Assembly (NCBI GenBank): GCA_964017145.1
Contig: OZ024841.1
Span: 1,426,001-1,490,000 of the forward strand
DNA from: Agrocybe praecox
Lineage: Eukaryota; Basidiomycota; Agaricomycetes; Agaricales; Agrocybaceae
Direction of reading: 5' to 3'
Length of the DNA stretch: 64,000 bases
A program made the position numbers and the translations under genes. The notes under the pieces were generated by a model. That model was not told where the DNA came from. It saw nothing but the letters and a program-made list of their open reading frames with translations, and did no database searches. Numbering within the stretch: position 1 is the first letter of the stretch; the number at the start of each line of letters is the position of its first letter. Shown here piece by piece: positions 1,988 through 41,108 of the stretch.

Positions 1988-2660
1988 AAGAAATGCAAAC
2001 TTGAGTCAAAGAGAGGCCATAAATTGCCAAAATGGAGTCATGAGCCGTCGAGGCAGAGGCGATAGGATTACAAATTGGAAAGCGCGATATGATTTCAGAC
2101 TGGAAGCCGATAGTAGGATTACAGATTGGAAGTCTGTAGGGTGACAATATAAGGAGAATGTTGACGCCGGGTAGGAACACGGTGCTTCTGGCCAGAAGTA
2201 TCGTGGTGATAGTGTCCTCATTTCTAGCATGGTATAGACGTGGTGATATCTTGGTTCCTAATATGATATAGACGCGGTGATATCTTGATTCCTAAGATAG
2301 ACATGGTGATATCTTAATTCCTAATATAGTATAGACTGTGATAATTGATTTCAATGACTGGTACTGCTAAAATTATAGGACATTGAGTTCTAGACAATGA
2401 TGCACAATGGGGGACTGTCATTGCACCAGTATTTTATTTGCGTGCCTTTTCGGTCGCGGGGTGGCCCTAATTTTGCTTGGAACCTTAAGGTTTGAGCAAT
2501 ACGGAAAGGAATGGAAAAATTATAAGATGAACTGAAATGACTCTAGAGGAAGCACAAAACCGACCCAATTATCTGAGGCATCCTAGCATCCAATCCTTTG
2601 CACTATGACTGAAAACACTCGCCAAGCTGCAAATAGGGACAGCGGTGAACAAATGTTATC
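1988..2660 (+). repeat. Direct duplication, copy 1 (HMG A upstream region)
   Basis: This roughly 670-bp segment, ending just inside the first codons of HMG gene A, is repeated in the same orientation at about 24471-25165. Shared anchors include GAAATGCAAACTTGAGTCAA, GTCGAGGCAGAGGCGATAGG and the block around the A start codon. The copies differ by substitutions and small indels. It contains the presumed promoter of HMG A. Confidence 0.8.
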
Positions 2661-3693
2661 ATCACTTGCCGTAGGATTTCAGCCGCTCGGCACACCGCAC
2701 CGGCTGTACCCTTTACAGAATGATAACCCTTCTGTTGTCTCCTCACCACCTCCCATCAACTCAGACCGTCAAGCGCATCTAGATACTTCTCTCCCACCTC
2801 GAAAATTCAAGAAGCCAAAAACATCTCGCAAAACAAAGGGCCCCAATCACGTCCCTCAGCCTAAAAACAGCTTTCTTTGTTTCCGTTCGAAATTTGTTGC
2901 TGCCCATGCCTCATCTCTCGCCAATGGAGAAAAGCAGCAAAACGAGCTTAGTAAAAGGGCGGGTGAGTTATGGCGTGCGATGACCGACGAACAGAAAGCA
3001 GAATATCATGAGGAGGCAAGACAAGAAAGGGAAAAACACGCGATCAAGTATCCAACATATGGACTGAAGGAAAGGGCACGCCAGGCATCCTCTCGCAGCA
3101 ACAAAAGTCCCATTTCACCAGAGGCCGCCACAGAGACTTTTGTACGCGAAACATTCCCATTCAACCCGCAATCATTCTTCCAAAATCCAGCTGAGCAGAT
3201 TGCGGGCCCTCGTCATTCTTGGGAGACAAACGGACATGCTACTTTCACTCATGGATTACCTTTTAATCACGGCGTAGAGTCAAACATGGTGCGTGTCTTC
3301 TCTAATTAAACGACTGAAGTCGGATTGTATTCACGCCCTCTTTGTCTTCAGCCCAAACTATTCCCACCTGATCATCCTCCTACTTTCCCTCACCAATCTT
3401 TCGCAGGAGCCGACCCCACGCTACCCATGGCAAGCTTCCAACAGTTTGAAGGATACCGACAGTACGAGAATTGCCAACGTCCTTTTGTTCCTCAACAATT
3501 CAGTTTACCGATGGGATACATGCCGGAATTCCAGCTGCCACAGGCACCGATGCCCATACAACCACTGCCATACCCGCTTCTCCGGGGAACTTTCGTGCCT
3601 CCATCCATCCAAAGCGACTCGTTCTGGACCTCGGATGTCCCGGTGGACTATGACATCAGCTCAGATGTCGGGATCCTCCCTCAATCCCAATGA
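2605..3693 (+). CDS. HMG-box protein, MATA_HMG-like (HMG gene A)
   Basis: Exons are 2605-3288 and 3352-3693, giving 341 residues. The HMG box covers about residues 80-150, beginning PQPKNSFLCFRSKF and ending EREKHAIKYPTYG, which is the arrangement of fungal mating-type-like (MATA_HMG) boxes that bind DNA in the minor groove. The rest is Pro/Ser/Gln-rich and probably disordered. Intron 2 (3289-3351) is at the position conserved in the paralogs. The intron 1 seen in paralog E is reduced here to 30 nt (2645-2674), in frame, and is probably read through. A 2-nt deletion relative to E near 3660 changes the last 12 or so residues, so the family C-terminal signature AQMSxSxxN is lost. It is likely a nuclear transcription factor; its targets are unknown. 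Confidence 0.8.
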
Positions 3694-4065
3694 ATAATGT
3701 GCGCTAGTTCCATTTCTGGCACAAACTCACCTTCTTTTACACCACAACAGCTACTGCACACGTCTTAAAACTCTTTTTCGCCCCAAGATATTCTGGAATA
3801 ACCACCTTTTCTCTTCATTTATCGACTAGAACCTTTCTGCTACAATTTCAATGTAATCTATCTGTGGTCTACATTGTACTACGTACGTTCACAATGACAA
3901 TTAGCGCCCGGTTGGGCTTGCTCGGACTTGTATTTTCAAAGCCCCGTTCTCACTAGGAATAGAGTTGTATGCGTGAAGCGTATATCTCTAGCCGCATGGC
4001 GCGTATTTGAAATTTCTGCGAATTCTACCAATCAACGAAGCACATACCGAGCCTACGATGAAAAC
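3694..4065. other. Spacer downstream of HMG A
   Basis: No gene. The DNA up to about 3990 is mirrored downstream of HMG E (22380-22080) and probably holds the A 3' UTR. Beyond about 4020 the match to the right arm is lost until about 4630. Confidence 0.5.
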
Positions 4066-4253
4066 ATGAACATCTTCAACGTACTCCTCGTCGTTCCTCT
4101 CCCCCTCGTCGTCTCGGCAGCACCAGTGTCCGAGTCGGGTGAGCTGCATCCTGGAACATCGGACTCGTGCTCGTGTCGTGTGTAAGTACTAGTACTATTT
4201 CCTCCCTCCAACTGAGAATAACATCACACAATAGGTGGAAGACACTATGCTGA
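4066..4253 (+). CDS. Candidate small secreted cysteine-containing peptide
   Basis: Exons 4066-4181 and 4235-4253 give a 44-residue precursor. Residues 1-19 (MNIFNVLLVVPLPLVVSAA) look like a signal peptide with an Ala-Ala cleavage site. The mature part is short and Ser/Gly-rich and ends in a three-Cys tail, CSCRVWKTLC. The 53-nt intron has canonical ends (gtaagt..aatag); if it is retained, translation stops after CSCRV. The gene lies wholly in the spacer block present only in the left arm. It could be an effector-like or signalling peptide, or a chance ORF; no family is recognised and it is too short to judge by codon use. Confidence 0.3.
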
Positions 4254-4885
4254 CGTTTATGCTCATGCACAGCGTGTACTACCACAACCATCCTCGTCTA
4301 TAAACGTCCCACTAGCTAATGTGGTGGAATGTTAACTACGAAGGTATACCCCTCCCCAGCTGACTATGGAACGATGGAAATCGAATAACTTGGATCGAGT
4401 GGGATATTGACTGATATTGATTGCATACTTCTTTCGTTTATTGGAAGAAATGTACAGCTGGAACGTCTCTGAGCTGTGTAACGAAAGGGACCAACCAGTG
4501 TGGACGTACGTTATCCAAGCGATAGTATCTTCCGTTTCCGAAAGTAGACATTGTTATACCTTAAATGGAAGTTCCTTGTCTGTTCTGAGAAGTCATCCTT
4601 CATCGTATCGTGTCCCATTATTCGCCATCTCGAATATCTTAAAACGGGCTCTAATTTTTATTGTGGAGCTACAATACAATTTACGGATAGCTTGCATAGG
4701 TGTTTTATTGTGCGAGAAAATCAGAATATTATTCTAGTTCAAAATTGAGGAGGAAGCAGACATTCCGGAAGGTTGGCGAAAAAATAGAAAATAAGAAAGG
4801 CAATCAAGTAGGAAGTGGGGTGTAATCTATATTCATTATTGTTGGGAAAGGATTATGATTGGGAAGCAAAGATGGAAGGAGCGCA
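4254..4885. other. Spacer between HMG A and HMG B
   Basis: AT-rich, with no supported gene. From about 4630 it matches the right arm again in inverse orientation, for example the stretch reading GCTCTAATTTTTATTGTGGA. Confidence 0.5.
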
Positions 4886-5266
4886 TTATCCGTAGAGATT
4901 GAGATAGGTTTCCGACATTGGGACTAGCAAGTCCGTGAAAGTCCGTGTCATCGTCCGCCTCAACGTTCGACGTCCAAAGTGGGTCACTCTGCGTCGAAGG
5001 AGCTGCATGAGTGTCCCCATACATGTTGAAAAATGGTTACAACAGCGGATGCATCGCAGTGGATACCTAAGGCAGGTTGAATCCTGGCGTGAGTCCCATG
5101 GATGGACCGATGGTCGTTGGGCGTTATGGAGGAAAGAATGGACATTGAAGATTCTCATACTGTGTGTATCCTTGAGGCTGTTAAAAGCCGCCATTGAGCC
5201 GTGAAGTTGACTCCCGTAAAAAAAGGTCCGCTGTACGGTCGTAGGATTGGCTGGGAAGAGCTCGGG
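4886..5266 (-). pseudogene. Decayed extra copy of the HMG last exon (left arm)
   Basis: Downstream of HMG B lies a second copy of the family's last exon. It starts after a cag acceptor with PELFPANP (compare PEVFLPG in B and PKLFPPD in A) and ends in MSETYLNLYG, a version of the C-terminal signature. Reading frames shift inside it: a start resembling MAAFNS is out of frame with the beginning. It therefore cannot be a normal alternative exon. The same relic occurs in the right arm at 21411-21780, so the exon was duplicated before the arms were. Confidence 0.65.
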
Positions 5267-5361
5267 CTGAACAGGAAAAGAAAATAGTATTGCATTAGTT
5301 GGGTAGAATGGACATCGGTGTAGAAAAGAACGGAGCATAAGCTAGAGCATGCAGTCATGCA

Positions 5362-6532
5362 TTATCCGTCAAGATTGAGATACGAGTCCGACATTTGGGC
5401 TAGCATTTCGTCGTCCACGGCGAGGTTCGACGCCCGAAATGGGTGGCTCTGCATTGAAATAGGTGCGTGATTGTCGCTAGCCATGTTGAATAACGAGTAT
5501 GGTAGTTGTTCTATGGGCATCTGTGTCTGTGTAAGGTCGACGTTTGGTGTAAATGCGGTACTAGACGGAGTAAAGGCCGTTGGAAGCGGTTGAGGAAAGT
5601 AAGGGTAAGGGGGAGAAAACCGAGAATTATCGTATTTTGCGTACGCTTGGAACTGTTGGAAGCCTGCCAATGTGGCCATGGTATTGAATACTGTGTAGGA
5701 TTGCTGGAGGAGAGTCGAACTCGAACTTAAACCAGGTAGGAATACCTCAGGCTGAAGTCAAAAGAATTCTGCGAGTGCAAGTCCTTGGTCATCTGCTTAG
5801 AGAAGGCGTGTACTTCGTTGAGTTCTACACCGTGGTTGGACTGCAGAGTAGAAGTAGAGATAGCAAGGTTGCTGGTCTCCAAATAATGACCAGGAACATG
5901 CGAAAGGCTCGCGATCTGCTCAGCTGGCTGCTGGTCAATTGTCGGTTGAAATGGGAGTGCCTCGTGCAAAAAAACCTCAGCGGCAGCCTCTGGTAGAGTG
6001 GGAAGCTTGTTCTCGCGAGGCCGAGACGAAGGCGGCTCGGGTTGCCTTCCCTTCGATTTCTGGGGAGAGTAAATATAACCAGGATACTTCTTGGCGTGCT
6101 CCTCCCTTTCCTTCCTAGCCATCTCACGGTATTTCGACTTTTCTTCGTTAGTCAGTTCATGCCATGCAGCACCCGCATCTTTACTAAGCTCGCTTTGGGA
6201 CAACGTCAAGGTAGCAACATAGTCCAACCGGAAGAGAATGAAGCAGTTTCTTGGCCGAGGGATGTGATTGGGGTCCTTTGTGCTGCAAGAGGTTTTTGGT
6301 TTTCGAGGTGGGAAAGAAGTGTCTGTAGACGCTCGACTGACAGAGTCGCTAGACGATGGTGAGGAGACAACAGAAGCCTGGTTATCATCATTCAAAGGGA
6401 GCGGTGTGCCGGCCCGCTGATATCCTATGGTGTAACGTGATTGGTTGGTGGTGAACAGGATAGTGATGACGATATACGCTTACCACCATAGGATCTATTT
6501 GTGGCTTGGCGAGAGTTCCTAATAGCAGGCAT
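5362..6532 (-). CDS. HMG-box protein, MATA_HMG-like (HMG gene B)
   Basis: Transcribed leftwards from exons 6532-6484, 6424-5814 and 5751-5362 (349 residues). All splice sites are GT..AG and phases agree. The start MPAIRNSRQ matches the start of paralog C (MPVIRNNRQ), which supports the short first exon. The HMG box spans about residues 70-135, from HIPRPRNCFILFRLDYVA to EREEHAKKYPGY. The tail is rich in Phe, Tyr, Pro and Gln and ends with the family signature LAQMSDSYLNLDG. It is the intact counterpart of pseudogene D. It is presumably a DNA-binding nuclear regulator; whether it takes part in mating or fruiting cannot be told from sequence. Confidence 0.85.
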
Positions 6533-6772
6533 AGTTAATAGAACGGGACAGGAAGACGCTGGACACCTCAGATAATGGAGGCGTTTGTGGGCGTTTTTCG
6601 TCTCTTTCGGAGTCCTTTATAGTTTTTCTCAATCCCAGTTTTTTTTCTCAATCCTCCCATATTTTGTGCCGAGGCCACATTCTGAACGCCTCGCAGGGGA
6701 ATTGGGGATCCATAAAAGGTATTTTCATATCAGACTCTACCATACTCTGCCTGCATAGTGGGCTTCTCCGAA

Positions 6773-6786
6773 GAGGTGGCGATGCA
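6773..6786 (+). promoter_or_regulatory. Conserved HMG-family upstream element (gene B)
   Basis: The sequence GAGGTGGCGATGCA lies about 240 bp upstream of the B start. Near-identical elements sit at almost the same distance and orientation upstream of C and F, and upstream of D. Confidence 0.5.
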
Positions 6787-6800
6787 GGAGGTATTCAGAT

Positions 6801-7421
6801 GAAAGGGAATCAATTATTCAGCAGGGTTCTGAATAGGGACGGCCACTAATAATGTAACTTTCCGTTTCCTAAATTAGGTATCGCGATACCTTAATAGGAA
6901 GGTTCAACCTTGTCTGTTCTAGAAGCCGTCGTCCTTCAAGCATTGTATTTTTTGCTACGATGAGTATGTATCTTGAGTGCATAACCTGCCAATGTATATA
7001 AGTATGTGTTATTCATCGAATGAAATGATAAACGATAAATTTACTCTGTGGTAATAAATGGACATATATTGAATCATATTCATCAGAGAGGTCGTACAAG
7101 TATATGTTTAGTATGTGGATGTTGTGTTCTTCTGGTAATGTTCAGAGAGAAGGGAAAGAAAATAATTTGAGAGGAGGGTGTAATGTTTTGGTCGTTAGTA
7201 TGAGTCGGTGGGATTTCCATTTTTTATTGAGTCGAGAAAGGAGAAGGGAGTCGATCATAGATCCATAATTTGTGGTTTGAAGTAAAAAAATAAAGGTGCC
7301 GTGAAGAGAAAAGAAATTCGTTCGTTTCGTTCATCACATGCCCGCTCGTACGAGTCGCCAACACTCGCAAGCCCATTCGTCATTGGTCTATTCGTCGACC
7401 AACCGCATCATTGCCCGGGCC
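6801..7421. other. Intergenic DNA between HMG B and HMG C
   Basis: AT-rich, without a supported gene. It holds the 3' flank of gene C on its right side. No repeat was recognised. Confidence 0.5.
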
Positions 7422-8779
7422 TTATATCTCAGTTCCCTCAAGGTTGAGATACGAAGCAGTCAAATCTGCCAACACCTGGGTCTCCACATTTACTGTAGAC
7501 GGCGCACAATTTTCGTTCTGCATATATCCGTTCTGCGCAGAGGAGCTGCCAGTATGCAGTACGATCTCGCCCATGCAGTTGAAGAATAGGTGCGTGGTTG
7601 TGATTTGGCTTTCCCTTTGGGTTTCGCGTTTGGTGGGTTGTCTGTAGAATGTGGATGGGTGCGGCAGAGGATTGTTGAACAGAAGGCCGATTTGGCTGGT
7701 GGTAACAGAAGTAGAAGCAGCAACAGCGGCAAAGGCCAGGGGAGGTTGCGAAGATGAGGATGCCGACGACGAAGAAGAGCCAATATCATAGCGCTCGTAC
7801 TCCTTGAGATAATCCCAGACGTATGGCGTCTCGGTGTCGTTACACACCACCGACGAGGGTTCAAAGGCCTGCGGGGTGATTCTGCCAAGAGAAGGAGAAG
7901 GCGAATACGGGATCGGAGAAAGCATCGAGAGCATTGCCGTAGGGCTGAGGTATGGCTTGAATCCGGGATGTTGGGCGATCCTCTGGTCTGGGATGCATGG
8001 CTGGTGGAAGGCTGGGATATGACAGAAGAATGGCTCGGTCTGACCAGGTGGATAAAAAGAATGTGAGTAACTATTTGTATAAAAATACTAGAGGGAACGT
8101 ACCTCTGCTTGATCTGTCTCGGAATTCGACTGAGTTGCAGGAGATACCGGCTCACTTGGGACTGCCTCGGGCGTCAAACCCTCACGCACACGACCAACAG
8201 ACTCCGGAGTCGCAGGAGTCCAAGTGTCTTTCGAAGACGAAGGCGTCTTCCGCGTCACAGACGCCTGTGCCCTTGAACTACCCTTAGGAGAATAACTATA
8301 ACCCGGATACTTGATCGCATGCTCCTCCCTTTCCTTCTTTGCGAGTTCCCGGAATGGACATTTCTCTTCGTCCGACAACATCGCCCACGCTTTGCCCGCA
8401 TTCTTGCTGAGCTCGTTCTGCTGATCTTCTCCGTTGGTCGCAGATGGAGTAGCGACGTAGGTGGAACGGAAGAAGATGAAGGCCTTCCGGGGACGAGGGA
8501 TGTGATTTGGGTCTTTTCGCAGTTTGTATTTACAGTTGTAATTCCTTGACGGTACGGTGACGGAGCTATCAGTTCCTGAAGACGCGAGTGTAGCCGCCTG
8601 ATTGTTCGAATTCACTGAGGGCACAACAAAGGGCTGGCTGTAAGGATTGGATAGCTTGTATCCTGTACCAGATATCTTTGATTAATTCCTCAATGGGTTC
8701 TTATTGAAGATACGTGCTTACCACCATATTTGACGGAGTACATATTTCCAGTTTGGCGATTGTTGCGAATGACAGGCAT
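7422..8779 (-). CDS. HMG-box protein, MATA_HMG-like (HMG gene C)
   Basis: Exons 8779-8722, 8662-8103 and 8039-7422, read leftwards, give 411 residues with matching phases. The short first exon encodes MPVIRNNRQTGN. The HMG box is at about residues 72-140, from HIPRPRKAFIFFRSTYVA to EREEHAIKYPGYSYSP. A Ser/Thr-rich linker follows, then a Pro-rich region and a C-terminal motif LTASYLNLEGTEI that resembles the signature of B. It lies in the spacer of the palindrome but is a clearly diverged paralog, not a product of the recent inversion. The conserved upstream element lies about 240 bp from the start. It is probably a nuclear DNA-binding protein of unknown targets. Confidence 0.85.
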
Positions 8780-8957
8780 GATAACAGAGATGGTTTCAAA
8801 AAGCGGGAAATAATCGCAGGGAATTTCTGGGTAACCCAGAATCCGTTACGACCATCTTATACCTTTCCGAATCCTGAACTTTGAGGGTCATAAATAGTAG
8901 TCAAATGACATTTTGGAGGCTTCGTGGAGGTCCAGATATCCATAGCAGGTAAATAGC

Positions 8958-9024
8958 ATCAGCCTCGAGGCGGCTATTCACAAAATAAAATGCTTCCGCG
9001 ACACTTCAAAGGGGTGGCGGTGCA
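8958..9024 (+). promoter_or_regulatory. Conserved HMG-family upstream element (gene C)
   Basis: ATCAGCCTCGAGGC (8958-8971, with a GCCTCGAGGC palindrome) is followed about 40 bp on by GGGGTGGCGGTGCA (9011-9024). The same two-part arrangement with similar spacing occurs upstream of HMG gene F at 59277-59344. The AGGGG core resembles a stress-response element, but that reading is an inference. Confidence 0.6.
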
Positions 9025-10177
9025 TCCAATCAATCGGCCTTGTTTATCCAGTAAATAATATCCGGCACAGAACGGCGGCTGGCGTGGTTTAAAACAAAAA
9101 ATATAGGCTCGTGTAGACTCGCGACCAGTACGTTAGGTGGTGATTACTCATATGTCATCGATTCATTTGACATCTCTGATGCCTCATTGTTTGGTCTTTG
9201 TTGTGAGTTTGTTTGTGCTTCCTAACATCAAGCGAAACTCAATCGGGCTTGATGTTTGAATAGGCTCGTGAGTCCAACGAACTGGTCGCGAGTCTACAAA
9301 AAACATGACTACATAGTAACCAAACACGAGTAAATTACTAGGCTCGTGACCAGCCATTTCTGTTTCAAACCCCGCTAGCCCTTTGAAGAGTCCGCTTGAT
9401 GTTTGAACCCTATTTTTGGACACAACAAACAAGCACAAATCATGTACAAATAATAGAGCACCGCTCAAGGAGAGATTCAAGTTCGAACTGGTCGACCGTC
9501 GGGAGTCTAGTAAATCACCACTGTTACGCACAGAGTCTGGTGCGAGTCGCGAGTCTATTTTTTCAAGTTCATCCACATAACGGGGAGAACATAATCAACA
9601 ACATGTTCGGAATACCATATAGAAGACGTAGTAGCGTTGTTCGCCATCATCAGTGCCGAAAAAGAACTTCTTCCCTGCACTCGCTTGACTTGAGGAACAA
9701 ATCTTTGCAAGGTCGAATCGTCGATGATTTCCAAGGAGCGTCTGAAGGCATCGGTGAAGAAAGTTAAGGAGTTTACGGGGCTGAGTGGGACTGTAGTTGG
9801 CTTGGTTTAGAGGAAGTGTCGTCCTCAGATCACAGAGTTGAACCGACAGGCTTTCCGACAGTCGCGACTCTGACGAATTATGTCATTGACTAGCCCAACT
9901 TGTTCCCTGGCCAAGTGTGGTGCTTATGCTGACCTTGACGTTTCCGCAGACTCTACAGACTGTCAAAATTGCTACCAGTAACGACGAGATCTCAACTCCA
10001 TAGTTGATTCAAGGTACGTAGTAAACCTCTATTATTGCTTACACAAATATCAAAAATTATACTCTAAGGATAAACATTCTACATCTTGGGATCCTCTACG
10101 ACGGACATACCCTGACGATCTTTGTAATAAAGTATGTCCCCTGTTTTTATTGTTATCTTAATCAGAAAAAATTCATC
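9025..10177. other. Intergenic DNA
   Basis: Short overlapping ORFs on both strands (9184-9767) have no recognisable domain and no splice model. The phrase 'CTCGTGA/CGCGAGTC' recurs loosely at 9110-9560, suggesting a degenerate repeat. The right end is the 3' flank of the desaturase gene. Confidence 0.4.
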
Positions 10178-11751
10178 TCAAATTTCAGGAGGTACATTAC
10201 CTTCATCTTCAACGAATTGGCAGCTCTTAAAGTTTGCCCACAGGCTCGTAAACGAATTCTTGGCGCTGAAGTGATACTCGTCCCCGAGCTCACGTTTAAC
10301 TATCTCCGTAGCTTCCTCGATGTAATAGAAAGGCATCGCAGGGAAAAGGTGATGTACGGTGTGATAATGGGCAATCTAAAAACATTTATTCGTAAGTTAC
10401 AGACCAGCAACTGTATGCAAAAAACTGTCCACTCACATTATGCAAGAAGAACTTCCCTTGCCACCCGAGGAAATTGCGATCCATGGTCGAGAGCGCTCCG
10501 AGTCGGTAGCTCCATGCGCTCTTGCGGTAATGCGGCAGGATCGGATCGGTATGCTGCAAGAAGACAATCATGGTGACCCAATGGCATACAGCAATCGATG
10601 GGATTCCATATAGCGCCCAGACACGGGTAGCGCCGGCCCAGGACCCCGCGACGTACACCAGGTATACCATCAAACATATCCCAAAGTTGGATAACATAAT
10701 ATGTTTCCTTTGGGAGGGCTTAAAGATACCCGTTGAATAAGCTGCGACGTGCGTGAGCTCAAACGCATAGTAATTTGCATTGTTTTGTTTTTAGCGGAGG
10801 GGTGGGGAGGGGAGTGACTCACGGTTAAAGTGGCTCGTTGGAGTTGAGTATTTCTGCCCGGAGGTGTTCATGACCAGGTAGGCGTGGTACCCGAGGATCT
10901 GTTGGATGAGCAGGCGGAAGACGTTGACTATCGGAGTGTCTTCGAAGAACTCGGCGATGTTGGTGTTCTCGGCGGGCAGTCCGAGTTCACTTCGTGTTTT
11001 TGGGATCCAGCTGGGTGGGGGTAGATGGTGTAAGTGAGATTCTAATTTCTCACAAAGTCCATATAAGGCACGTACTGTTCGTCCTTTTCCATCGAGGCAT
11101 GGTGGCGATGATGAGACTGATGCGTGTATTTCCAGCTGAAGTACGGTGTCCATGTGAATGTGTGGCATAGCTACGCCGACGACGAGTGAGTATATCGCCG
11201 GCATATTAAGTGAATTGTGTATGCACTCACGAAACCGACGAAGTCTGACAATTTTCTCGATTGGGAAAAGGCGCCATGTCCACACTGGAAAAAAATTAGT
11301 GCGGGCCTGACGCGCTAGAGCCAAAGGCGTACGTACCTCATGTCCAATAACCCATATTCCGGTGAAATTCAAACCTTGAAACCACCAGCTAGCGCGATAT
11401 GTTAGCCTCGTCGCCACCAGCGTCAAACAACACGGGATATGGGAGCCACACTCACTAGGTTAACCAAAGGGCCGTTTTGAGAACCCATTTCGTTCCAGCT
11501 CCCCCCTCGTAAGATGCAACTAGTCCATCACCCTTCACCACCGCATACCCAAGGAGAATGGCCACTGCGACGTCGCGAATAAAAGTATGAAGTGACCGTT
11601 TGGTATCTGGTCTGAAGAAGTGCTCGGGCATCTTCGCCCTGAGACTAACGACTCCTCCACTTTTATATCCAGGAAGCTTGAATTAGGAACGGGAACACCT
11701 TGACCGGGATAGATCGACATGACAGGCTTACCTTTCGACAGGCGGGGCCAT
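10178..11751 (-). CDS. Delta-12 type (FAD2-like) membrane fatty acid desaturase
   Basis: Eight exons read leftwards: 11751-11732, 11638-11456, 11388-11337, 11284-11231, 11170-11076, 11010-10823, 10741-10437, 10375-10178; 364 residues. The three histidine boxes of membrane desaturases are present: HECGH (about 84-88), HQSHH (about 120-124) and HTVHH (about 304-308). The segment VFLQHTDPILPHYR is typical of delta-12/omega-3 desaturases, di-iron enzymes of the ER that add a double bond to oleoyl or linoleoyl chains. Hydrophobic segments lie between the boxes. The protein is some 50-80 residues shorter than usual at the N-terminus; the 20-nt first exon is the least certain part, and an alternative acceptor near 11680 puts the reading out of frame. 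Regiospecificity cannot be settled by eye. Confidence 0.85.
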
Positions 11752-14700: not shown

Positions 14701-14941
14701 CCGGGGAGAGAGAATCGTTCATATTCGCTGGCTCGGAAACGACAGCGCAGCGAAAAAGTGTCGTAAGGTCGAATCCGTCCTGTAGGTGTTGTTGTAGTCC
14801 AATGATGACGATGATGATGATGATGTCCAATGATGATCGATGATGTAGAAAGAACACGGAGGATATGGGCATCCACGTCCGCCGGGGGTATCATGAAAAT
14901 TGGGGTAAGGAGGAAGATTTGATTGCCAGCAACATAAGAAA
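11752..14941. other. Long gene-poor stretch
   Basis: No gene could be supported in about 3.2 kb. There are many short GTACGTAC-like words, several poly-A or poly-T tracts (around 14360-14380), a partial local duplication near 14160-14280 (AGCCATTCAAGAAGAGACA twice) and a short GAT-triplet run near 14800-14835. Hydrophobic antisense ORFs here follow from A-rich composition. Confidence 0.5.
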
Positions 14942-17131
14942 TCATATCTTGCCCTCGACCCGGTCTTCAATGAGTTTAGCCAAGGATGCGGCATGTACGG
15001 GGATTTCATTCCCCTGAAAGCCGTCGGGGTAGTCCACGTCCGGTTTGTTGGGGTAATAGTGGGCCCTGGGTGGGTGAAAGGAGTAATGCGTTAGTATAAC
15101 GTGTAATTCAAAACGAAAACGAGATTCACAAAAAAAAAAAAAAGAGACAAAAAAAAGTAAACTTACTTGTCGTTCCAGATGGCAAAATGACGCATCCCAA
15201 GAGCCCGAGATGTCCAATAGTAATCGTGTGCAAAGCCTTTGGGGTAGAAGATCTCAATGACGGTAGACAGTCGACTGGGCTTCATGAAGACAAGGTGAGT
15301 GAGCCCATTGCCGTGTACGCCCAACATAATCTAGGAAGAAAATGAGAAAACAAAAATGATAACATAATAAAACAAGACCAACCGTAGTCCTAGCAGCCTC
15401 TCTAACCTGCTCATCCTTCGACATCTTCTCAGCCTGGAGGACATTAAATTCCCACTCAAGCGGTACTTGATAGTGAAAATCGTCTCTTTTTGTCCTCCCA
15501 TCTTCATCTTCATCATCGCCAATCAGATCAACAGCCATCAAAAATTCCTGTCTCTCCTTATTCTTCCTCGCCACCAACTCCTTCATCGCCTTGACCATCT
15601 CCTCGTGATCCTTCTGTATCAGCTTTCTGTTCCTCGCGCCCTGCCGGCTGATATAGCTGATGACCACCTTATCAGGTAACGGCAGCTTCTTCTGTTCGTC
15701 GTCGCTCACTTCGACGAGCTTCGAGGGGGAGTTGTCAATACCTACGACGTCGGTATTGGAAGCCATGAAATGCATAACTTGTTGCGTGCCCTCATCGGAT
15801 GATGAAGCAGCACGAGCCAAGAAACCAGAAGCCGACGAGGGTGATGTAACACTCTGCAGGCCTTCTTCAGCGCCTGCGAAGCGCCATACTGCTTCGCGCA
15901 AAGGGGCCCACCAACCACCTACGTGGATGCCCCTGAGCTTTCCCTTCCTGCGCATGAAATCCCATGCCTCAGCAGCCGTTCTCTGCGTCTGCGAGCCACA
16001 AATTGGGCCGCGGTGCGCTGCGCTCCTATCGGTGAGGAGGACGGTGGAAAAGTGCCATGCTCTTTCTGGCTGGCCGGGCTTGGGTTGGGTGGAAATTATA
16101 CGGTCCTGCCAGTCTTCTTGGTGTTCGACGATGAGAGAAGGAAGAGCCGCGCGAAGGAAGTAGGAGTTGAACCCTGGGTCGTCTCTCCATCCGTTTGCAT
16201 TGGAATGGGCGAAAATGGCACGATGGATCGGGGGTGCCGGTGGATGTATCAAGGAGAAGTGAGGCGAAGAAGAAGCAGAGGACGAATCCGTAGCTGGTAC
16301 AGGTTGGGAAAAAGCTCCATGCCAGAAAGCCTGTGCACCAAAGAAAAGTTCGGCGACAAAGTGGTAGTAATGTCGTAGGAATTGCTTGGGGTCGTTGAAA
16401 AGCAGCTAAATTAACGCTCGATCAGCTCCCGTTTAAACGGTGTCAAGGACTTTCAAAACATATGACAATCACTTCAAGCGGTGATCGAGGGGAGAAAACA
16501 TATTGTATATAAGAGAACTTACTGTATTGCCCTCTACAGTCCACACCCTGTTCAACGCCCTTTCCCTCTTCCCAACAGGATACACCCAGCGCCGCCTCGC
16601 TTCTTCCGGAGAGATAATCTGCATATTCTTGTCCGTAGGCTCTCTCATAGCAATGTTCTCTGGTGTGTTCTCCGCCTCCAACCCAGTACTTGTCATCATC
16701 CTAATCTCAGGAAACGCCTTGCGCTCTTCCTCATCTGCGACGATGAACAATGTCCCGTCTGCCATGTATAAATTCCGGAATAACGTCCATCCTGGTGCGT
16801 GAGCGAGGAGCTCTGTATGCGGGAGATCGTCGAATGGAAGGACGAGGCTGCTGCTGCTCTTCGCTATGGGCGTACCCAACGCCGTAGCAGTGACCGTCTG
16901 TGTCTGCGTCTGTGTCTCCTTCTCTGTCGCCGTCGCCGTCTCGTGGCGCACCAAAGTCTTAGTCAAAGTCACTTGCGGCACTGCAGGCTGCAGACTCGTA
17001 TTGATGACGATATTCTGGTCGCTCAGTCCGATATTGTTGCCGAACAGGAGCGACCATATGTGCATGGACGACGCTCCTATAAGTAGGAGGAACGCATCTC
17101 TTCGGGATAGTGCGCCGTGTCGGAATATCAT
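14942..17131 (-). CDS. GT61 family (DUF563) glycosyltransferase, type II membrane protein
   Basis: Exons 17131-16523, 16405-15383, 15330-15167 and 15065-14942, read leftwards, give 639 residues. Residues about 10-32 form a single N-terminal membrane anchor, as expected for a Golgi or ER type II glycosyltransferase; a Thr-rich stem follows. The catalytic region carries the GT61-type motifs HYYHFVAELFFG (about 214-225), GVHGNGLTHLVFM (about 548-560) and VIEIFYPKG, ending with the ALGMRHFAIWND segment. Known GT61 enzymes transfer xylose, arabinose or GlcNAc to glycans or protein; the donor here cannot be predicted. The second intron has an unusual donor (gttggt), but the phase and the continuous motif across it support the model. 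Confidence 0.85.
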
Positions 17132-18520
17132 GGTTTATGGATGGTTTCGCCTTGAGGGGTACCAAGTACTGGATAGAATACGCACGCGCCGGGTTGGTTG
17201 GCGTATGTATGTATGCTCCTTGATTTTTAGGATTTTAGAAAGAAAAAAAGAGTGAAACGGCCTTACACCGCCCGCTGCTGACGGGGGTCGAGTAACTGGA
17301 AGGGAAAAGAGAAAGATGGAACCAACCAGGTATCGACCCTTTCATATTGGTTTAACCAAATTGTGCTTATGTTAGTGTTAGTTTACATAACATATTGATC
17401 TTCTCTTGGCATTTTTTCTCGTTTTGAAATCGTGGGAATTGTCAGAAAAAAAATTCTTGCTCGTTCTACGACGTCCTGTGTATGTCCTTTCCTTACCGTC
17501 GTGGACTATAACCGGGTCTTCAAAAAGATCTTCGGGGATGATTTTTATCTGTTACTACTATTCACAAGAGCGGTACTTATCGAAGAAGAAAACGTACATA
17601 GGATCACGGCAGAAGGCTCGTGTCCGTTGGTAGAGCGACTTCGAAGGATCAAAGCTCGGCATTTCGAAATTTCATCAATGTAATCCACAGGTCAGCAGCC
17701 AACTATTCTGCGTTAATGGTATGACATACGCAAACAACTCGATGTACAAGACGACCGTCTGAGACGTGGCTCTGAATCGTCGGAGTCGTATTCGGAACCG
17801 CCTCTGAGTCTAGGTATTTATTTTCTTCCCACTTTATCTGCACGAAGCTTCTACATACACCCACACGTCACGCCTTGAGTGCAAAGTTGAAATTCAACGA
17901 AAATGGGCCGTCTGTCTCTGTGTGGTGCCTGCTGCTCCTGCTCCTGCTCCTGCTCTCCGGGCTTATCTGCGATAATTTATAATCCACCGTTACTGATTAT
18001 TCTAGGACTTGACCATGGCACTTTATGCCTGTTTCATCGCAGACATAGCGATATGTAGTTTGTAGCACTTTAGTCGGTGTTCCTGTCTCATATCGGCCAC
18101 CTTCATCTGCCGCTCGTCGCTCGTCGACTCCTTTACTATCACTCCAGTCTCTGTCTGTCTTCTCTGTTTCTGGACTCTGGACTCTGGAGATTCGTCTGCG
18201 TGCCGAAGCAAAACACAACAAAATTACGTACGTACGTAATGTCTTGGACGACCCAGGGTATCGCTTACATACTTACATGCTACTGGCCGTTATCGCAGGT
18301 ATTACGGGCAAGAAGGGCACTGTTTCTTTCTTAACTGCGATTTCTGTCTCTTGGTTCCAATCAAGTCTCATCACCATGGTGCATATGTACATAAGGAAAG
18401 CCCTAAGTCAGCTCTGGCCAGACAATAATTATATCCCTACGTGCATGAATCATCTTCCAGCAGAAGTACACTATGTCTGTCCTGTCGATCATGACACCAT
18501 ATAGACGTAATCAAGGGATG
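17132..18520. other. Intergenic DNA upstream of the GT61 gene
   Basis: Contains the presumed GT61 promoter on its left side. Short ORFs (17406-17683, 18077-18504) show no recognisable content. A short CTGCTC-type hexamer run lies at about 17930-17955. Confidence 0.5.
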
Positions 18521-19235
18521 CTGCTATGCTATTCATAATTCTAGGCGTACGTTTTCGTGGTGAATGTTCAGATGCGAAGTGCAATAGAAATAGTTTCCGT
18601 CAAATGACAGTAGATTTGCCGTTGGCGTCTCGTGGGGTGTTTCACACTACCTTGTACAACTTTGATGTCAACTTATCGAAAAGTTGAGCCAAAAGTCGAA
18701 GCAAAGTTGGGCCAAAAGCTGGCTACTGTGAAGCCCCCTAATGACGATTTGTTTCGATGGTTTACATCTCATGGGCTTTGAACGTAGGCTCTAAAAAAAT
18801 CAAAATGAATCCTCCATCGTAGGTCCTAGTCTGTTGGTGTCTATACTAACATGCACACCGCCTGATCGCGACCTCCTCCTCTTCTTCTTCATACACCCCT
18901 CCATTGAAGCTTCAAACTCGATCCTCCTTCATCCCTCTCGGCGAATACCTCTAAATTCGATACGACTTTCGGAACGGCTCATGATTCGCGACTTGTATGC
19001 CACATACGAGGAGAAGGTGGTCGGTGAGCTAAGGGAGGAGGTCAAGAGGAGCTTGAAGTAAATGTCGATGTATGAGATTTTTTTATAGGTAAAGTAAAGG
19101 ATATTAAAATGATATAGAGTTAGTTTGATTTATCATGGACTATTCTGTAAAGAAATATGGACGCAAGTACGAAAAAAAAAGGAATTATCAATTGAAAGAT
19201 GCAAAAAGGGACCAGCTCCGACTCCTACCAGGCAC
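18521..19235 (+). repeat. Duplicated segment, copy 1, with a possible prenyltransferase relic
   Basis: This segment matches about 25176-25730 in the same orientation, with a block near 18545-18745 missing from the other copy. Near its end the reading LMIRDLYATYEEKVVGELR (about 18978-19034) occurs in both copies. In the second copy it is preceded by CRKDAERK and KELFEQLKIRD. This resembles the C-terminal end of farnesyl-diphosphate-synthase-type proteins, but frames are broken, so at most a gene fragment is present. Confidence 0.55.
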
Positions 19236-20039
19236 TCTTTTTGGGTGCTCTCCAGTCTAGGTCAAGAACATGATCTCCTTTCACTTATTTAAGTATTTAC
19301 TTTGGATTCGTTTTCACTTTTACAAATCTGGGCGCTTCTCTAGCAGTAGCTGAGTATCCTCACGGTCTCACAGTCAAGTGTTCGATATCCAATTGTTTTG
19401 GAGTTGTTTTTTTTTTGGCCTTGGTGATTTATATCCTGTGTTTGTTTCCATTTGAATATGTATCTGGCCTTTTCTTCGCATCTTTCGGGGCCGGATTGGA
19501 AGCTTAGCAACCCATGGCATAAATAAATTGGATTTAACCTCACCAGGTGCAATCCGCAAATAAGCTCGAGCTCCTGGAGAAATTTGGCGATTAACGTCTA
19601 CGTTTAATTCTCGAACTCGGGGAGATGTATAATTATGAGATGCTAAAATATAACAGTGAACTTTTTCTGGTAGTGACCTGTAGTACCCCTTCCTACGGTA
19701 CAAATTACAGACCATTTCTAATTCTGTCATATGATTATGGAGTTTGGGTCGACCGTCGTTGGTTGTTCGTCGGTTATGCTTTCCACATTGCAAACGTCAA
19801 GAGTCGTTTGAGCGTCTTGAAGCTCGATGCTGATAAATATATTTATTCGGGATATTTTGTAGCGCCAGGATCACTGCTAACGCGGTGTAATCGTTCGGAG
19901 GACTTCTCTAGGCCCTGATCTGGATAGATTAGGGAGAAAGACGCGGTATCCAGTCTGACAACTCACACTTCAAAATTCAGAAATACCTATAGTACTTGAG
20001 GAAGACAGTCACGTTCACGCAATCCACTTCCTTCCCATT
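19236..20039. other. Intergenic DNA with an unassigned ORF
   Basis: A 139-codon open frame on the minus strand (19793-19374) contains a basic tail KSPRPKKKQ, but it has no recognisable domain, no clear start context and no paralog in the window, so it is not called a gene. Confidence 0.4.
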
Positions 20040-20053
20040 CATCAAATACCTCC

Positions 20054-20067
20054 TGCATCGCCACCCC
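20054..20067 (-). promoter_or_regulatory. Conserved HMG-family upstream element (gene D)
   Basis: TGCATCGCCACCCC on the + strand is the reverse complement of the element upstream of B, C and F, keeping the same orientation relative to the gene. It lies much closer to the coding remnant than in B because the intervening DNA has been deleted. Confidence 0.5.
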
Positions 20068-20150
20068 TTTGGAGAGGCCCACGAGGCAGGCAGAGTATGG
20101 TAGGGTCTAATCTGGTCTAATATGAAAATACCTTTTTTGGACCACCTCCC

Positions 20151-21308
20151 CCTCGCCAAGCCAAAAATAGATCCTACGGTGGTAAGCGTATATCGTCATC
20201 ACTATCCTTTTCACCGCCAACCAATCACGTTACACCATAGGATATCAGCGGGCCGGCACACCGCTCCCTTTGAATGATGATAACCAGGCTTCTGTTGTCT
20301 CCTCACCATCGTCTAGCGACTCTGTCAGTCGAGCGTCTACAGACACTTCTTTCCCACCTCGAAAATCTACCAAACCAAAAACCTCTTGCAGCACAAAGGA
20401 CCCCAATCACATCCCTCGGCCAAGAAACTGCTTCATTCTCTTCCGGTTGGACTATGTTGCTACCTTGACGTTGTCCCAAAGCGAGCTTAGTAAAGATGCG
20501 GGTGCTGCATGGCATGAACTGACTAACGAAGAAAAGGCGAAATACCGCAAGAAGACTAGGGAAGAAAGGGAGGAACACGCCAAGAAGTATCCTGGCTATT
20601 CTTACTCTCCCCAGAAATCGAAGGGAAGGCGACCCAAGTCGCCTTCGTCTCTATCTGGCAAGAACAAACTTCCCACTCTACCAGAGGCTGCCGCTGAAGT
20701 TTTCTTGCACGAGGCACTCCCATTCCATTCCAACCGACAATTGACCAGCATCCGGCTGAGCAGATTGCGAGCCTTTCGCGTGTTCCTGGTCATTATTTGG
20801 AGACCAGCAGCCCTGCTATCTCTACTTCTACTCTGCAGACCAACCACGGTGTAGAACTCAATGAAGTACGCGCCTTCTCTAAGCAGATGACCAAGGACTT
20901 GCACTCACAAAATTCTTTTGACTTCAGCCTGAGCTATTCCTACCTGGTTCAAGTTCGAGTTCGACTCTCCTCCAGCAATCCTACACAGTATTCAATACCA
21001 TGGCCACATTGGCAGGCTTCCAACAGTTCCAAGCGTACGCACAATACGATAATTCTCGGTTTTCTCCCCCTTACCCTTACTTTCCTCAACCGCTTCCAAC
21101 GGCCTTTACTCCGTCTAGTACCGCATTTACACCAAACGTCGACCTTACACAGACACAGATGCCAATAGAACAGCTACCATACCCGTTATTCAACATGGCT
21201 AGCGACAATCACGCACCTACTTCAACGCGGAGCCACCCATTTTGGGCGTCGAACCTCGCCGTGGACGACGAAGTGCTAGCCCAAATGTCGGACTCGTATC
21301 AATCTTGA
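20151..21308 (+). pseudogene. HMG gene D, broken copy of HMG gene B
   Basis: Exon remnants lie at about 20151-20181, 20241-20865 and 20928-21308, with intron 1 (20182-20240) and intron 2 (20866-20927) conserved relative to B. Three lesions are visible. First, the DNA holding B's start codon and the region between the start and the upstream element is deleted, so exon 1 has no in-frame ATG. Second, an insertion of 5 nt near 20725 shifts the frame after the HMG box, so the open frame runs into SLLLLCRPTTV and stops. Third, loss of 2 nt near 21297 removes the terminal YLNLDG signature. The HMG box itself is still open (about 20410-20590). A shortened protein from the ATG at 20270 is possible but would lack the normal C-terminal half. 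Confidence 0.8.
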
Positions 21309-21410
21309 CGGATAATGCACGACTGCATGCTCTAGCTTATGCTCCGCTCTTTTCTACACCAATGACCATTCTACCCAAATGATGTATTACTATTTTCTTT
21401 TCCTGTTCAG

Positions 21411-21780
21411 CCCGAGCTCTTCCTACCCAATCCTACGACCGTACAGCAGACCTTTTTTACGGGAGTCAACTTTACAGTTTCGATGTAGCTTCAAGGATAC
21501 GGACAGTACGAGAATCTTCAATTGCCATTCTTTCCTCCACAACTTCCAACGACCTTCGATCCATCCACCTGACTCACGCCGGGATTCAACTTGCCTTAGA
21601 CATCGACCGCCATGCATCCGCTGCCATACCCGTTCTTCGACATGTCTAGGGACACTCATACACCTCCTTCGACGCAGAGCGTCCCATTTTGGATGTCGAA
21701 CGTTAGGGTGGACGATGACACGGGCTTGCACGGACTTGCTAGTCCGAATGTCGGACACCTATCTCAAACTCGACGGATAA
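21411..21780 (+). pseudogene. Decayed extra copy of the HMG last exon (right arm)
   Basis: Counterpart of 4886-5266. It begins after a ttcag acceptor with PELFLPNP and ends in MSDTYLKLDG, with internal stops and frame changes (a TAG near 21487 in the starting frame). It shows that a last-exon duplication is common to both arms. Confidence 0.65.
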
Positions 21781-22378
21781 TGCGCTCCTTCCATCCTTGC
21801 TTTCAAATGATCATAATCCCGTCCCCCACAATAATGAATATAGATTATATGCTTCGATTCCTTCTCTCATTTTCCATTTTTGCACCAACCTTCTGCGATG
21901 TCTGTTTTTCTCCTTAAATGTGAACTAGAATGATTCTGATTCTCTCACAAAATAAAACATGCAAGCTATCCGTAGATTGTATTTTAGCTCCACAATAAAA
22001 ATTAGAGCCCATCTTAAGATATTCGAGGAGACGAATATTGAGCCACGGATGCGATGAAGGACGATGCAACTAGAGCTATACGCTTCACGCATATAAATCT
22101 ATTCCTAGTGAGAACGAGGCTTTAAAAATGCAACTCTGAGCAAGCCCGAGCGGGCGCTAATTGTCACTGTGAACGTACGTAGTACAATGTAAATTACAGA
22201 TAGATTACATTGAAACAAATATAATTTATAGCAGAAAGATTCCAGTTGGGAAATGAAGAGAAAAGGTGGTTATTCCAGAATATCTTGGTGCGAAATTTGA
22301 AAAGAATATAAGACGTGTGGAGTACCTGTTGTGGTGTAAAAGAGGGTGAGTTAGTGCCAGAAGTGGAACTAGCGCACA
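21781..22378. other. Spacer between D and E
   Basis: Non-coding. It matches the left-arm spacer and the 3' flank of HMG A in inverse orientation. No gene; the left-arm secreted-peptide block is absent here. Confidence 0.55.
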
Positions 22379-23510
22379 TTATTCATCGGGATTGGGGGAG
22401 GACCCCGACATCTGAGCTGATATGTCATAGTCCACCGGGACATCCGAGGGCCAGAATGAGTTGCTTTGGATGGATGGAGGCATGAAAGTTCCCCGGAACG
22501 GCGGGTATGGCATTGGGTGTATGGGCATCGGCGCCTGTGGCAGGTGGAATTCCGGCATGTATCCCATTGGTGGACCGATTTGTTCAGGAACGAAAGGACG
22601 TTGAAAATTCTCGTACTGTCCATATCCTTCAAACTGTTGGAAGCTTGACATAGGTAACGTGGGGTCGGCTCCTGCGAAGGATGGGTGAGGGAAAGTAGGA
22701 CGGTGATCAGGTAGGAATAGCTCGGGCTGAAGATAAAGAGGGCGTGAATACAATCCGACTTCAGTCGTTTAATTAGAGAAGACACGTACCATATTTGACT
22801 CTAAGCCGTGATTGAAAGGTAGTCCATGGGTGAAAGCAACATATCCGTTGGTCTCCAGAGAATAACGAGGGCCCGCAATCTGCTCAGCTGGGTTTTAGAA
22901 AAATGGTTGCGGATATGAATGGGAGTGCTTCGCGTACAAAAGCGTCCGTGGCCGCCTCTGGTAAAGTAGGACTTTTGTCCCTGCGGGAGGATCCCTGGCG
23001 TGTCCTTTCCTTCAGTCCATATGTTGGATACTTGATCGCGTGTTTTTCCCTTTCTTTTCTTGCTTCCTCATGATATTCTGCTTTCTGTTCGTCGGTCATC
23101 GCACGCCATAACTCACCCGCCCTTTTACTAAGCTCATTTTGCTGCTTTCCTCCATTGGCGAGAGACGAGGCATGGGCAGCAACAAATTTCGAACGGAAAC
23201 AAAGAAAGCTGTTTTTAGGCTGAGGGATGTAATTGGGACCCTTTGTTTTGCGAGATGTTTTTGGCTTCTTGGATTTTCGAGGTGAGAGCGAAGTATCTGG
23301 ATGCGCTTGACGGTCTGAGTTGATGGGAGGTGGTGGGGAGACAACAGAAGGGTTATCGTTCTGTAAAGTGTACGGCCGGTACGGTGTGCCGGGCTGCTGG
23401 TATTCTACGTCATGAGATGATTGACTGATGACTCCAGTAGGATAGTGATGATAACATTCAATTTGCTCACCGCCACCCCTCTTTGCAGCTTGGCGAGTGT
23501 TCTCAGTCAT
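22379..23510 (-). pseudogene. HMG gene E, broken copy of HMG gene A
   Basis: Read leftwards, exons are 23510-23471, 23404-22790 and 22726-22379. Intron 1 (23470-23405, 66 nt, gtgagc..gtag) has full length here, unlike in A, and is itself open in frame. The HMG box (PQPKNSFLCFRSKF to REKHAIKYPTYG) is intact. After it, one extra nucleotide near 22914 relative to A shifts the frame, giving FISATIFLKPS and a stop. The exon lengths before intron 2 add to 655 nt, one more than a multiple of three, as expected from this insertion. The last exon is open in its own frame and keeps the signature AQMSGSSPNPDE that A has lost. It is probably a pseudogene, unless an unseen intron removes the shift. Confidence 0.7.
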
Positions 23511-23717
23511 AGTGCATAGGATTGGATGCTAGGATGCCCCAGATAATGGGGTTGGTTTTGCGCTTCCTCTAGAGTCCTTTCAGCCCATCTTATAATTTTT
23601 CCATTCCTTTCCGTATTGCTCAAACTTGAAGATTTCGTCATTGCACTCACCAGTTTTGCCCTATGTGATACGGTCCTTAGCCGCGAGCCCAGCTTTCGGA
23701 ACATATATACCCAATAC

Positions 23718-24470: not shown

Positions 24471-25165
24471 AGAAATGCAAACTTGAGTCAAAGACAGGCC
24501 CTATATTGCCAGAATGGAGTCATGAGTCGTCGAGGCAGAGGCGATAGGATTATAAATTGGAAAGTGCGATAAGATTACAGACTGGAAGCCGATAGTAGGA
24601 TTACAGACTGGAAACCGATAGTAGGATTACAGAGAATGTTAACGCCGGGTAGGATGGCCAGAAGCATCGTGTTGAAAGTCACTGTTGTTGGAATCGCGGT
24701 AATATCCTCATTCCTCGACTGAAAATAGTTCTATTATCAAACATCACTGATTTTTATCTTTTCTTATTATAACTATAGGGAGGTTTAAAAAGGCATAGTA
24801 TAGACGTGGTCGATATCCTCATTCTTAATATAGTGTAGTCTGTGATTTCAATCACCGGTACTGCTAAAAATATATAACCGTTGTCACTTGAGAATGCGCC
24901 ACAGCCTACTAATCTCGTCATTGCACCAGTATTTTATTTGCGTGCCTTTGTGGGCGCGGGGTGGCCCTAATTTTGCTTGGAACCTTAAGGTTTGATCAAT
25001 ATAGAAAGGAATGGAAAATTTATAAGATGGACTGAAAGGACTCTACTCTAAAGGAAGCGCAAAACCGACGCCATTATCTGAGGCGTCCTAGCATCCAATC
25101 CTTTGCACTATGACTGAGAACACTCGCCAAGTTGCAAATAGGGATAGCGGTGAGCATATGCTATC
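24471..25165 (+). repeat. Direct duplication, copy 2 (HMG upstream region)
   Basis: Copy of 1988-2660, with a block of about 100 bp near 24700-24800 that has no equivalent in copy 1. It carries the presumed HMG A promoter and its start codon. Confidence 0.8.
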
Positions 25166-25175
25166 ATCGCTATCA
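25110..25175 (+). pseudogene. Truncated 5' end of an HMG gene
   Basis: Encodes MTENTRQVANRDSG, matching the first exon of A and E, then the start of intron 1 (gtgagc). It breaks off at about 25175, where the sequence jumps to a copy of the 18.5-kb segment. Only the promoter and the first 13 or so codons are present. Confidence 0.75.

Positions 25176-39737: not shown

Positions 39738-41108
<1,371 letters not shown>

What the first reader, a model, noticed from the sequence alone, without database searches (positions are those of the whole stretch)
2490..23640. Giant imperfect palindrome carrying two convergent HMG-box genes per arm
A block of about 4 kb with genes A and B facing each other is repeated as a reverse complement about 13 kb away (D and E), including promoters, introns, 3' flanks and even a relic exon. 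Inverted duplications of this size are unstable and can mediate inversion or gene conversion. Their presence around mating-type-like HMG genes recalls MAT-region architecture, although no known MAT marker gene is in the window.
Basis: seen in the sequence. Interest (0 to 1): 0.75.

Follow-up and report, generated by a model that had tools for sequence, protein, structure and literature searches.

The report
HMG-gene palindrome beside mushroom mating-type locus
In an unnamed gilled-mushroom-like fungus, a real but ageing inverted duplication carries sex-factor-like HMG-box genes and belongs to a larger array of such genes lying on both sides of the pheromone/receptor mating-type locus, which makes a possible link between HMG factors and mushroom mating types testable.

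Summary
The palindrome is real. Win 2481-6513 matches win 23634-20152 in reverse complement, 91% over 3,408 aligned columns, introns and flanks included. It is larger than reported: inverted homology resumes outside (C2:1423646-1425519 ~ 1454408-1452352, 85%). The arms are unequal: A and B give intact models, D has lost its start codon and upstream region and has a 5-base insertion, E a 1-base insertion. A 311-base identical tract in B/D suggests arm-to-arm gene conversion.

The context is the stronger result. 17 of 38 genome HMG-box hits lie at C2:1.288-1.485 Mb, eight left and nine right of a pheromone-receptor (MATB) locus at 1.348-1.381 Mb with eight STE3 models and four pheromone-precursor candidates. 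A CLA4/STE20-class kinase, a MATB marker, is in the window. An HD gene with MIP is on another contig. So 'no MAT marker' is wrong and the MAT idea partly right. I read the palindrome as one duplication in a birth-and-death HMG array flanking MATB, not a switch. A mating role is unproven; in 8 of 8 comparable species the listed HMG and STE3 proteins have different contig lengths.

The parts
2481..6809 (+). left arm (inner part) of the palindrome, genes A and B; win ~3998-4592 and ~6514-6708 have no counterpart in the right arm
20032..23634 (-). right arm (inner part), copies D and E
2605..3693 (+). gene A, HMG-box, exons 2605-3288 and 3352-3693, 341 aa, intact model (type starting MTENTRQ)
   Evidence: own gene finder; Pfam
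5362..6532 (-). gene B, HMG-box, exons 6532-6484, 6424-5814, 5751-5362, 349 aa, intact model (type starting MPAIRN)
   Evidence: own gene finder; Pfam
4883..5338 (-). relic copy of the last exon downstream of B; counterpart in the right arm about 21379-21783
7422..8779 (-). gene C, HMG-box, 3 exons, 411 aa, intact model; in the spacer; paralogue at C2:1413793-1415171 (80% DNA, direct)
6810..20031 (.). spacer between inner arms, about 13.2 kb, with gene C and a GT61 gene
14942..17065 (-). glycosyltransferase family 61 gene in the spacer
20152..21308 (+). copy D (partner of B): homology stops 19 bases short of B's start, upstream region lost, 5-base insertion after the HMG box; read as a pseudogene
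22379..23510 (-). copy E (partner of A): HMG box open, 1-base insertion shifts the frame before the C-terminal part; read as a pseudogene or truncated gene
6138..6448 (-). 311 bases identical between B and D (HMG box and part of intron 1): candidate gene-conversion tract
24981..25174 (.). extra copy of the HMG upstream/first-exon piece beside E (84%, inverted to E; direct copy of A's flank, 90%)
26352..28891 (-). outer right arm: X' (26352-27022, 27190-28408) and S' (28438-28891); left partners C2:1423646-1425519 and 1418728-1419186, both before the window start
58023..59103 (-). more distant HMG-box gene (322 aa) on the kinase side
45358..47929 (+). CLA4/STE20-class kinase (PBD + protein kinase), MATB marker; only the last 716 of 1,198 residues of the model were scanned, and the part from 43210 may be a fused neighbour
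   Evidence: marker use: PMC3140503, PMC8970355

Best explanation
The palindrome is an old inverted segmental duplication (block S-X-A-B) inside a rapidly duplicating array of SRY/SOX-like HMG-box genes that flanks both sides of the MATB (pheromone precursor / STE3 receptor) locus of an Agaricales-like mushroom. Shown: inverted collinear blocks, uneven identity, decay of the right arm, further copies of A, B, C and X nearby in direct and inverted order, array members on both sides of a P/R locus. Inferred: the array grows and shrinks by ectopic recombination between copies (birth and death) with occasional arm-to-arm gene conversion; low recombination around MATB lets such duplications persist; and at least the intact HMG genes still act as DNA-binding regulators, plausibly of the neighbouring sexual genes.
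For: Inverted arms; palindrome extends outward in the same order X-A-B; all DNA matches of X found are near this array. 17 of 38 HMG hits at C2:1.288-1.485 Mb. STE3 hits at C2:1.348-1.379 Mb; eight STE3 models and four pheromone-precursor candidates. CLA4/STE20-class kinase in the window. Tree of 20 rows: the 8 left copies group (99/99), the 3 right A-type copies group (95/93), both within the A type (99/98). D and E frameshifted; L2, L5, L6 of the left cluster look broken. dN/dS 0.42-0.56 in 8 of 11 pairs, 0.68-0.77 in C-C'', L1-A and B-D. Tract: 311 identical columns, 0 of 2,000 shuffles, against 45 mismatches in 774 in the rest of B.
Against: The HMG copies arose by local duplication, so their density beside MATB is roughly one placement, not 17 independent ones. 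In 8 of 8 comparable species the listed HMG relative and STE3 hit have different contig lengths, though several of those contigs are short. The 311-base tract lies mostly in the conserved HMG box, so constraint explains part of it. Expression and recombination were not measured; all gene models come from my own simple gene finder.
Confidence: 0.75

Rival explanations
1. Neutral passenger (differs from the best explanation only in function): the HMG array has no role in mating and expanded near MATB only because low recombination there tolerates duplications. Its odds are not exclusive of the main structural reading.
For: No shared contig length of HMG and STE3 in 8 of 8 comparable species; five of 17 copies look broken (D, E, L2, L5, L6) and B'' may be truncated; dN/dS 0.68-0.77 in 3 of 11 pairs, two of whose intervals reach 1.
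Against: 8 of 11 pairs have dN/dS 0.42-0.56 with upper limits of at most 0.81. 3 of 5 other above-cut-off STE3 loci have an HMG hit within 50 kb (simulated P 0.0002; 2 of 4 without C195, P 0.006), a test framed after seeing the hits.
Confidence: 0.45
2. Maintained palindrome like those of the human Y or the Cryptococcus MAT pheromone repeats: arm-to-arm conversion preserves the HMG genes.
For: 311-base identical tract; introns of B/D 95-97% identical against 85% in the neighbouring part 4593-5361.
Against: Arms only 91% identical overall, and one arm has a lost start codon and two frame-shifting insertions not removed by conversion.
Confidence: 0.15
3. Switching device: inversion of the 13-kb spacer through the arms alters HMG expression.
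For: Geometry only.
Against: Divergent arms; only one orientation available; the 5' flanks of A, B and E lie within the arms, so inversion would not exchange them.
Confidence: 0.03
4. Assembly artefact.
For: No reads available; a run of 200 N lies in the left HMG cluster.
Against: Arms differ by 9% with private indels; matches of win 2400-6900 outside C2 only 82 and 140 bases; no N in the window.
Confidence: 0.03

Closest known systems
Agaricomycete MATB (pheromone/receptor) loci
   Same: STE3 array, CaaX precursors, CLA4 in the neighbourhood: PMC3140503 (passages) calls CLA4 linked to the B locus in other mushrooms, PMC8970355 (passage) delimits MATB by it
   Different: 17 HMG-box hits on both sides of the receptor locus. 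The word HMG occurs 0 times in the held main texts of PMC3140503, PMC8970355, PMC8686365, PMC13108863, PMC10598064, PMC8305134. In Flammulina CLA4 is not linked to matB
Inverted pheromone-gene repeats of the Cryptococcus MAT locus (PMC526376, PMC12510652; passages)
   Same: Inverted repeats in or beside a P/R region; gene conversion invoked
   Different: There ~500-base repeats with pheromone genes; here multi-kb arms with HMG genes, 91% identical, one arm decayed
SRY/SOX-type HMG-box factors (fungal MAT1-2-1, Prf1 and Mat2 as relatives are named from recall)
   Same: HMG box of gene C aligns best to SRY/SOX chains among 34 PDB sequences (2gzk, 6t78, 1j46)
   Different: Only the box was compared with PDB; no function tested; not compared directly with MAT1-2-1, Prf1 or Mat2
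HMG proteins of Psilocybe, Agrocybe, Flammula alnicola, Cyclocybe and others (98 hits)
   Same: Same family by profile; P0001 shares the MPxxRN start with types B and C; several copies in Psilocybe cyanescens, P. cubensis and Agrocybe pediades

Membership tests
Agaricomycete MATB (P/R) locus | STE3-type receptor genes | tested here: met
   PF02076 hits up to 198 bits at C2:1348171-1379441; eight models, one of them partial
Agaricomycete MATB (P/R) locus | CaaX pheromone precursor genes | tested here: met
   five CaaX-ended ORFs of 29-111 aa in C2:1345-1406 kb; four look like precursors (1368014, 1368651, 1374478, 1380957), the fifth overlaps a receptor; motif only
Agaricomycete MATB (P/R) locus | CLA4 linkage | tested here: met
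   PBD + kinase at win 45358-47929; CLA4 and STE20 not told apart
Agaricomycete MATB (P/R) locus | the window itself contains P/R genes | tested here: not met
   no STE3 hit inside C2:1426001-1490000; CaaX genes were not sought in the window
Tetrapolar layout | HD locus with MIP on another contig | tested here: met
   Homeobox_KN C1:3045525 beside Peptidase_M3 C1:3047645-3049173; a second Homeobox_KN hit is at C11:2147665; linkage of contigs to one chromosome not excluded
SRY/SOX-type HMG-box factor | HMG_box domain above the Pfam cut-off | tested here: met
   A, B, C and the 58-kb gene score 46.4-52.5 bits against 25.4
SRY/SOX-type HMG-box factor | sequence-specific DNA binding | not testable with these tools
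   only ACAAAG counts upstream: rank 1 of 30 same-composition motifs for STE3, 2 of 30 for HMG, 6 of 30 for pheromone genes
MAT idiomorph gene | different alleles in different mating types | not tested
   one haplotype only
Gene-conversion palindrome (Y type) | near-identical arms | tested here: not met
   91.2% overall
Gene-conversion palindrome (Y type) | exchange tracts between arms | tested here: inconclusive
   one 311-base tract

The most novel reading that the evidence does not exclude
HMG-box transcription factors are resident members of an extended MATB region in this mushroom lineage and are retained beside STE3 loci (also C3 and C10), so that the P/R locus carries its own SRY-like regulators in addition to the HD factors of MATA.
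Probability: 0.15. Interest if true: 0.85.

Novelty: new variant of a known kind. Interest (0 to 1): 0.55.

Why it matters
HMG-box factors decide sex or mating type in ascomycetes, mucoromycetes and mammals (recalled), while mushroom mating types are described by HD and P/R genes. A large HMG array on both sides of a MATB locus makes a direct question testable: have HMG factors been recruited to, or kept at, a basidiomycete mating-type locus? The palindrome is also a measurable case of inverted duplication, decay and possible conversion beside a MAT locus.

Tried and rejected
Organism by rDNA: the 5.8S search listed four hits, all on contig C217 (39 of 2,062 first-look candidates were scored); the sequence looks metazoan (nematode-like) to me from memory, so probably contamination; species not identified. 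Agaricales rests on the nearest STE3 (Agrocybe pediades, 78% over 75% of the query) and on HMG relatives.

X as a transposon: rejected as a dispersed element, the 5 matches are all near the array; no Pfam match.

Ustilago-type pheromone response 9-mer ACAAAGGGA (recalled): 0 upstream of 14 HMG starts (14 of 17 copies used), 1 in total upstream of 8 STE3 starts, 0 of 4 pheromone genes; no support. The core ACAAAG was 17 against 8.4 expected (HMG, P 0.009), 12 against 4.8 (STE3, P 0.0025), 4 against 2.4 (pheromone, P 0.23) versus random 800-base windows, a control not matched to promoters; some starts were set by hand. Against 33 other genes and same-composition motifs it leaves only a hint.

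HMG-STE3 co-location elsewhere: counted 5 STE3 loci above cut-off outside C2; left out three weak hits below cut-off (C6:1172688, C10:2954571, C11:1862392), none of them with an HMG hit within 50 kb, so 3 of 8 if counted. Two of the five (C12, C195) pass only with their neighbours in the frame.

Conserved HMG-STE3 linkage in other fungi: not found; 0 of 8 species with both proteins listed share a contig length (Agrocybe pediades, Psilocybe cubensis, Flammula alnicola, Desarmillaria tabescens, Armillaria novae-zelandiae, Mycena filopes, Coprinopsis cinerea, Bondarzewia mesenterica). Weak test: only the best 120 of 629 STE3 hits are listed, one contig length per cluster, different strains may be mixed, and several contigs are under 120 kb, too short to show linkage at 30-100 kb.

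Literature: nine searches; I saw no title or abstract in the listings that describes HMG arrays at a basidiomycete P/R locus. Only open-access papers are held; of eight-odd papers only passages by keyword were seen. PMC5871698 passages mention HMG for ascomycetes only.

First tree had two wrong domain cuts (C, L8) and was replaced, which also dropped C4_3292 and P0004; C3_2175 was never extracted.
Full report
Observation. Self-comparison confirms two inverted blocks: win 4593-6513 with 22064-20152 (89.7%) and win 2481-3997 with 23634-22064 (87.7%), plus a short piece 6709-6809 with 20141-20032 (81%). Aligned, the arms are 91.2% identical over 3,408 columns; coding 93.2%, non-coding 88.2%. Identity per 100 bases runs from 79% to 100% inside and drops to 35-47% in the bins outside 2481 and 6809. 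Both arms hold the convergent pair A/B or E/D, their introns, flanks and a relic last exon.

Extent. On a 264-kb stretch (C2:1256001-1520000, joined) inverted homology resumes outside the reported arms: C2:1423646-1424866 with 1454408-1453190 (85%), 1424845-1425519 with 1453022-1452352 (85%), and 1418728-1419186 with 1454891-1454438 (84%). The order X-A-B on the left is mirrored on the right, with stretches between the blocks that do not align. An extra A-type copy (A'', C2:1421117-1422659) sits between S and X on the left only, and B and C have further direct copies at C2:1411.7-1415.4 kb (70% and 80%). The DNA of X matched only near this array (5 matches) and its protein no Pfam family.

State of the genes. 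A, B and C give complete models with an HMG box above the Pfam cut-off. In the right arm, homology of D stops 19 bases short of B's start, the upstream region is gone, and there is a 5-base insertion; E has a 1-base insertion between the HMG box and the C-terminal part. I read D and E as decayed, though E keeps an open HMG box. In the left cluster, L2, L5 and L6 have stops outside the usual introns or frame breaks. Pairwise dN/dS is 0.42-0.56 for 8 of 11 pairs and 0.68-0.77 for C-C'', L1-A and B-D; models of D and E are approximate and B'' may be truncated.

Exchange between arms. The longest identical run between the arms is 311 bases (win 6138-6448) against a largest run of 145 in 2,000 shuffles; the adjoining part of B (5362-6137) has 45 mismatches in 774. 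The run covers the HMG box and part of intron 1. Constraint on the box explains part of it; silent sites and intron bases favour recent conversion (inference). One tract is weak ground for calling the palindrome maintained.

Setting. The window is C2:1426001-1490000 of a 59.17-Mb genome in 347 contigs. Of 38 HMG-box hits, 17 lie at C2:1,288-1,485 kb: eight at 1,288-1,306 kb, eight at 1,412-1,449 kb, one at 1,485 kb (the local re-scan of 264 kb also gave 17). Between the two clusters lies a STE3 array at 1,348-1,379 kb. My gene models give eight receptors there, one partial, with exon hits for further copies at 1,355-1,358 and 1,363-1,364 kb, and four CaaX precursor candidates ending CIVA, CVVA, CIIS and CTVA. 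The window holds a PBD + kinase gene of the CLA4/STE20 class; CLA4 marks MATB in PMC8970355 and is called B-linked in other mushrooms in PMC3140503, although not linked in Flammulina itself (passages). A homeodomain hit beside MIP is on C1. I take this as a MATB region; the inner palindrome begins 47 kb from the last pheromone candidate.

History. In the HMG tree (20 rows, midpoint root) the eight left copies form one group (99/99) and the three right A-type copies another (95/93), both within the A type (99/98). C, C'' and the 58-kb gene fall with two Psilocybe and one Desarmillaria protein (92/91, below the starred level). A convergent A-B block, with B as a relic, also exists at the left end (C2:1287632-1289901). 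So the two clusters probably share an A-B ancestor and then grew separately on the two sides of the receptor locus.

How far the link to mating goes. For: position on both sides of MATB; HMG hits within 50 kb of 3 of 5 other above-cut-off STE3 loci (simulated P 0.0002; 2 of 4 without small contig C195, P 0.006; 3 of 8 if weak hits are counted), framed after seeing the hits; ACAAAG ranks 1 of 30 motifs upstream of STE3. Against: the HMG copies are not independent; no listed HMG relative shares a contig length with a listed STE3 hit in 8 of 8 comparable species, a weak test; the 9-base response element gave nothing. I keep a functional role as a hypothesis.

Literature. Nine searches listed no title or abstract describing such an array at a basidiomycete P/R locus. 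The closest printed parallel I saw is the inverted pheromone-gene repeats of Cryptococcus, with gene conversion invoked (PMC526376, PMC12510652; passages).

Verdict. A genuine, ageing inverted duplication, one of several rearrangements in an HMG-box array that flanks a mushroom MATB locus. The palindrome alone is ordinary; the array at MATB is the part worth following.

Noticed in passing
C3:2175469 with STE3 at 2209679-2210766; C10:305880, 342719, 368186 around STE3 at 323894-324793; C195:94307 with STE3 at 77561: HMG-box hits within 50 kb of secondary STE3 loci elsewhere in the genome.
   Followed up: partly
C217:8538-51530 (L047): Four 5.8S rRNA hits about 12-18 kb apart; the sequence looks metazoan, nematode-like, to me (recalled), suggesting contamination of the assembly.
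   Followed up: partly
win 55207-57051 and 60225-62162: Direct duplicate (80% and 70%) of an IBR-type ubiquitin ligase gene on both sides of the HMG gene at 58 kb; the first copy was checked with Pfam.
   Followed up: no
win 39738-41108 and C2:1496567-1497955: Class II fungal peroxidase gene (Pfam on the first) and a copy 83% alike.
   Followed up: no
win 1987-2666 and 24469-25171: Direct (not inverted) repeat at the outer edges of both inner arms, with short tandem repeats of 25-34 bases.
   Followed up: no
win 29044-29123: tRNA-like gene (Rfam tRNA 47.8 bits; ARAGORN did not name the amino acid) just outside the outer right arm.
   Followed up: no
C2:1293848-1294047: Run of 200 N inside the left HMG cluster; gap or withheld, not known.
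   Followed up: no
C2:1299522-1301837 and 1304929-1307306: 2.4-kb duplicate (85%) in the left cluster that carries reading frames which look gag-like to me (not tested), next to HMG copies.
   Followed up: no
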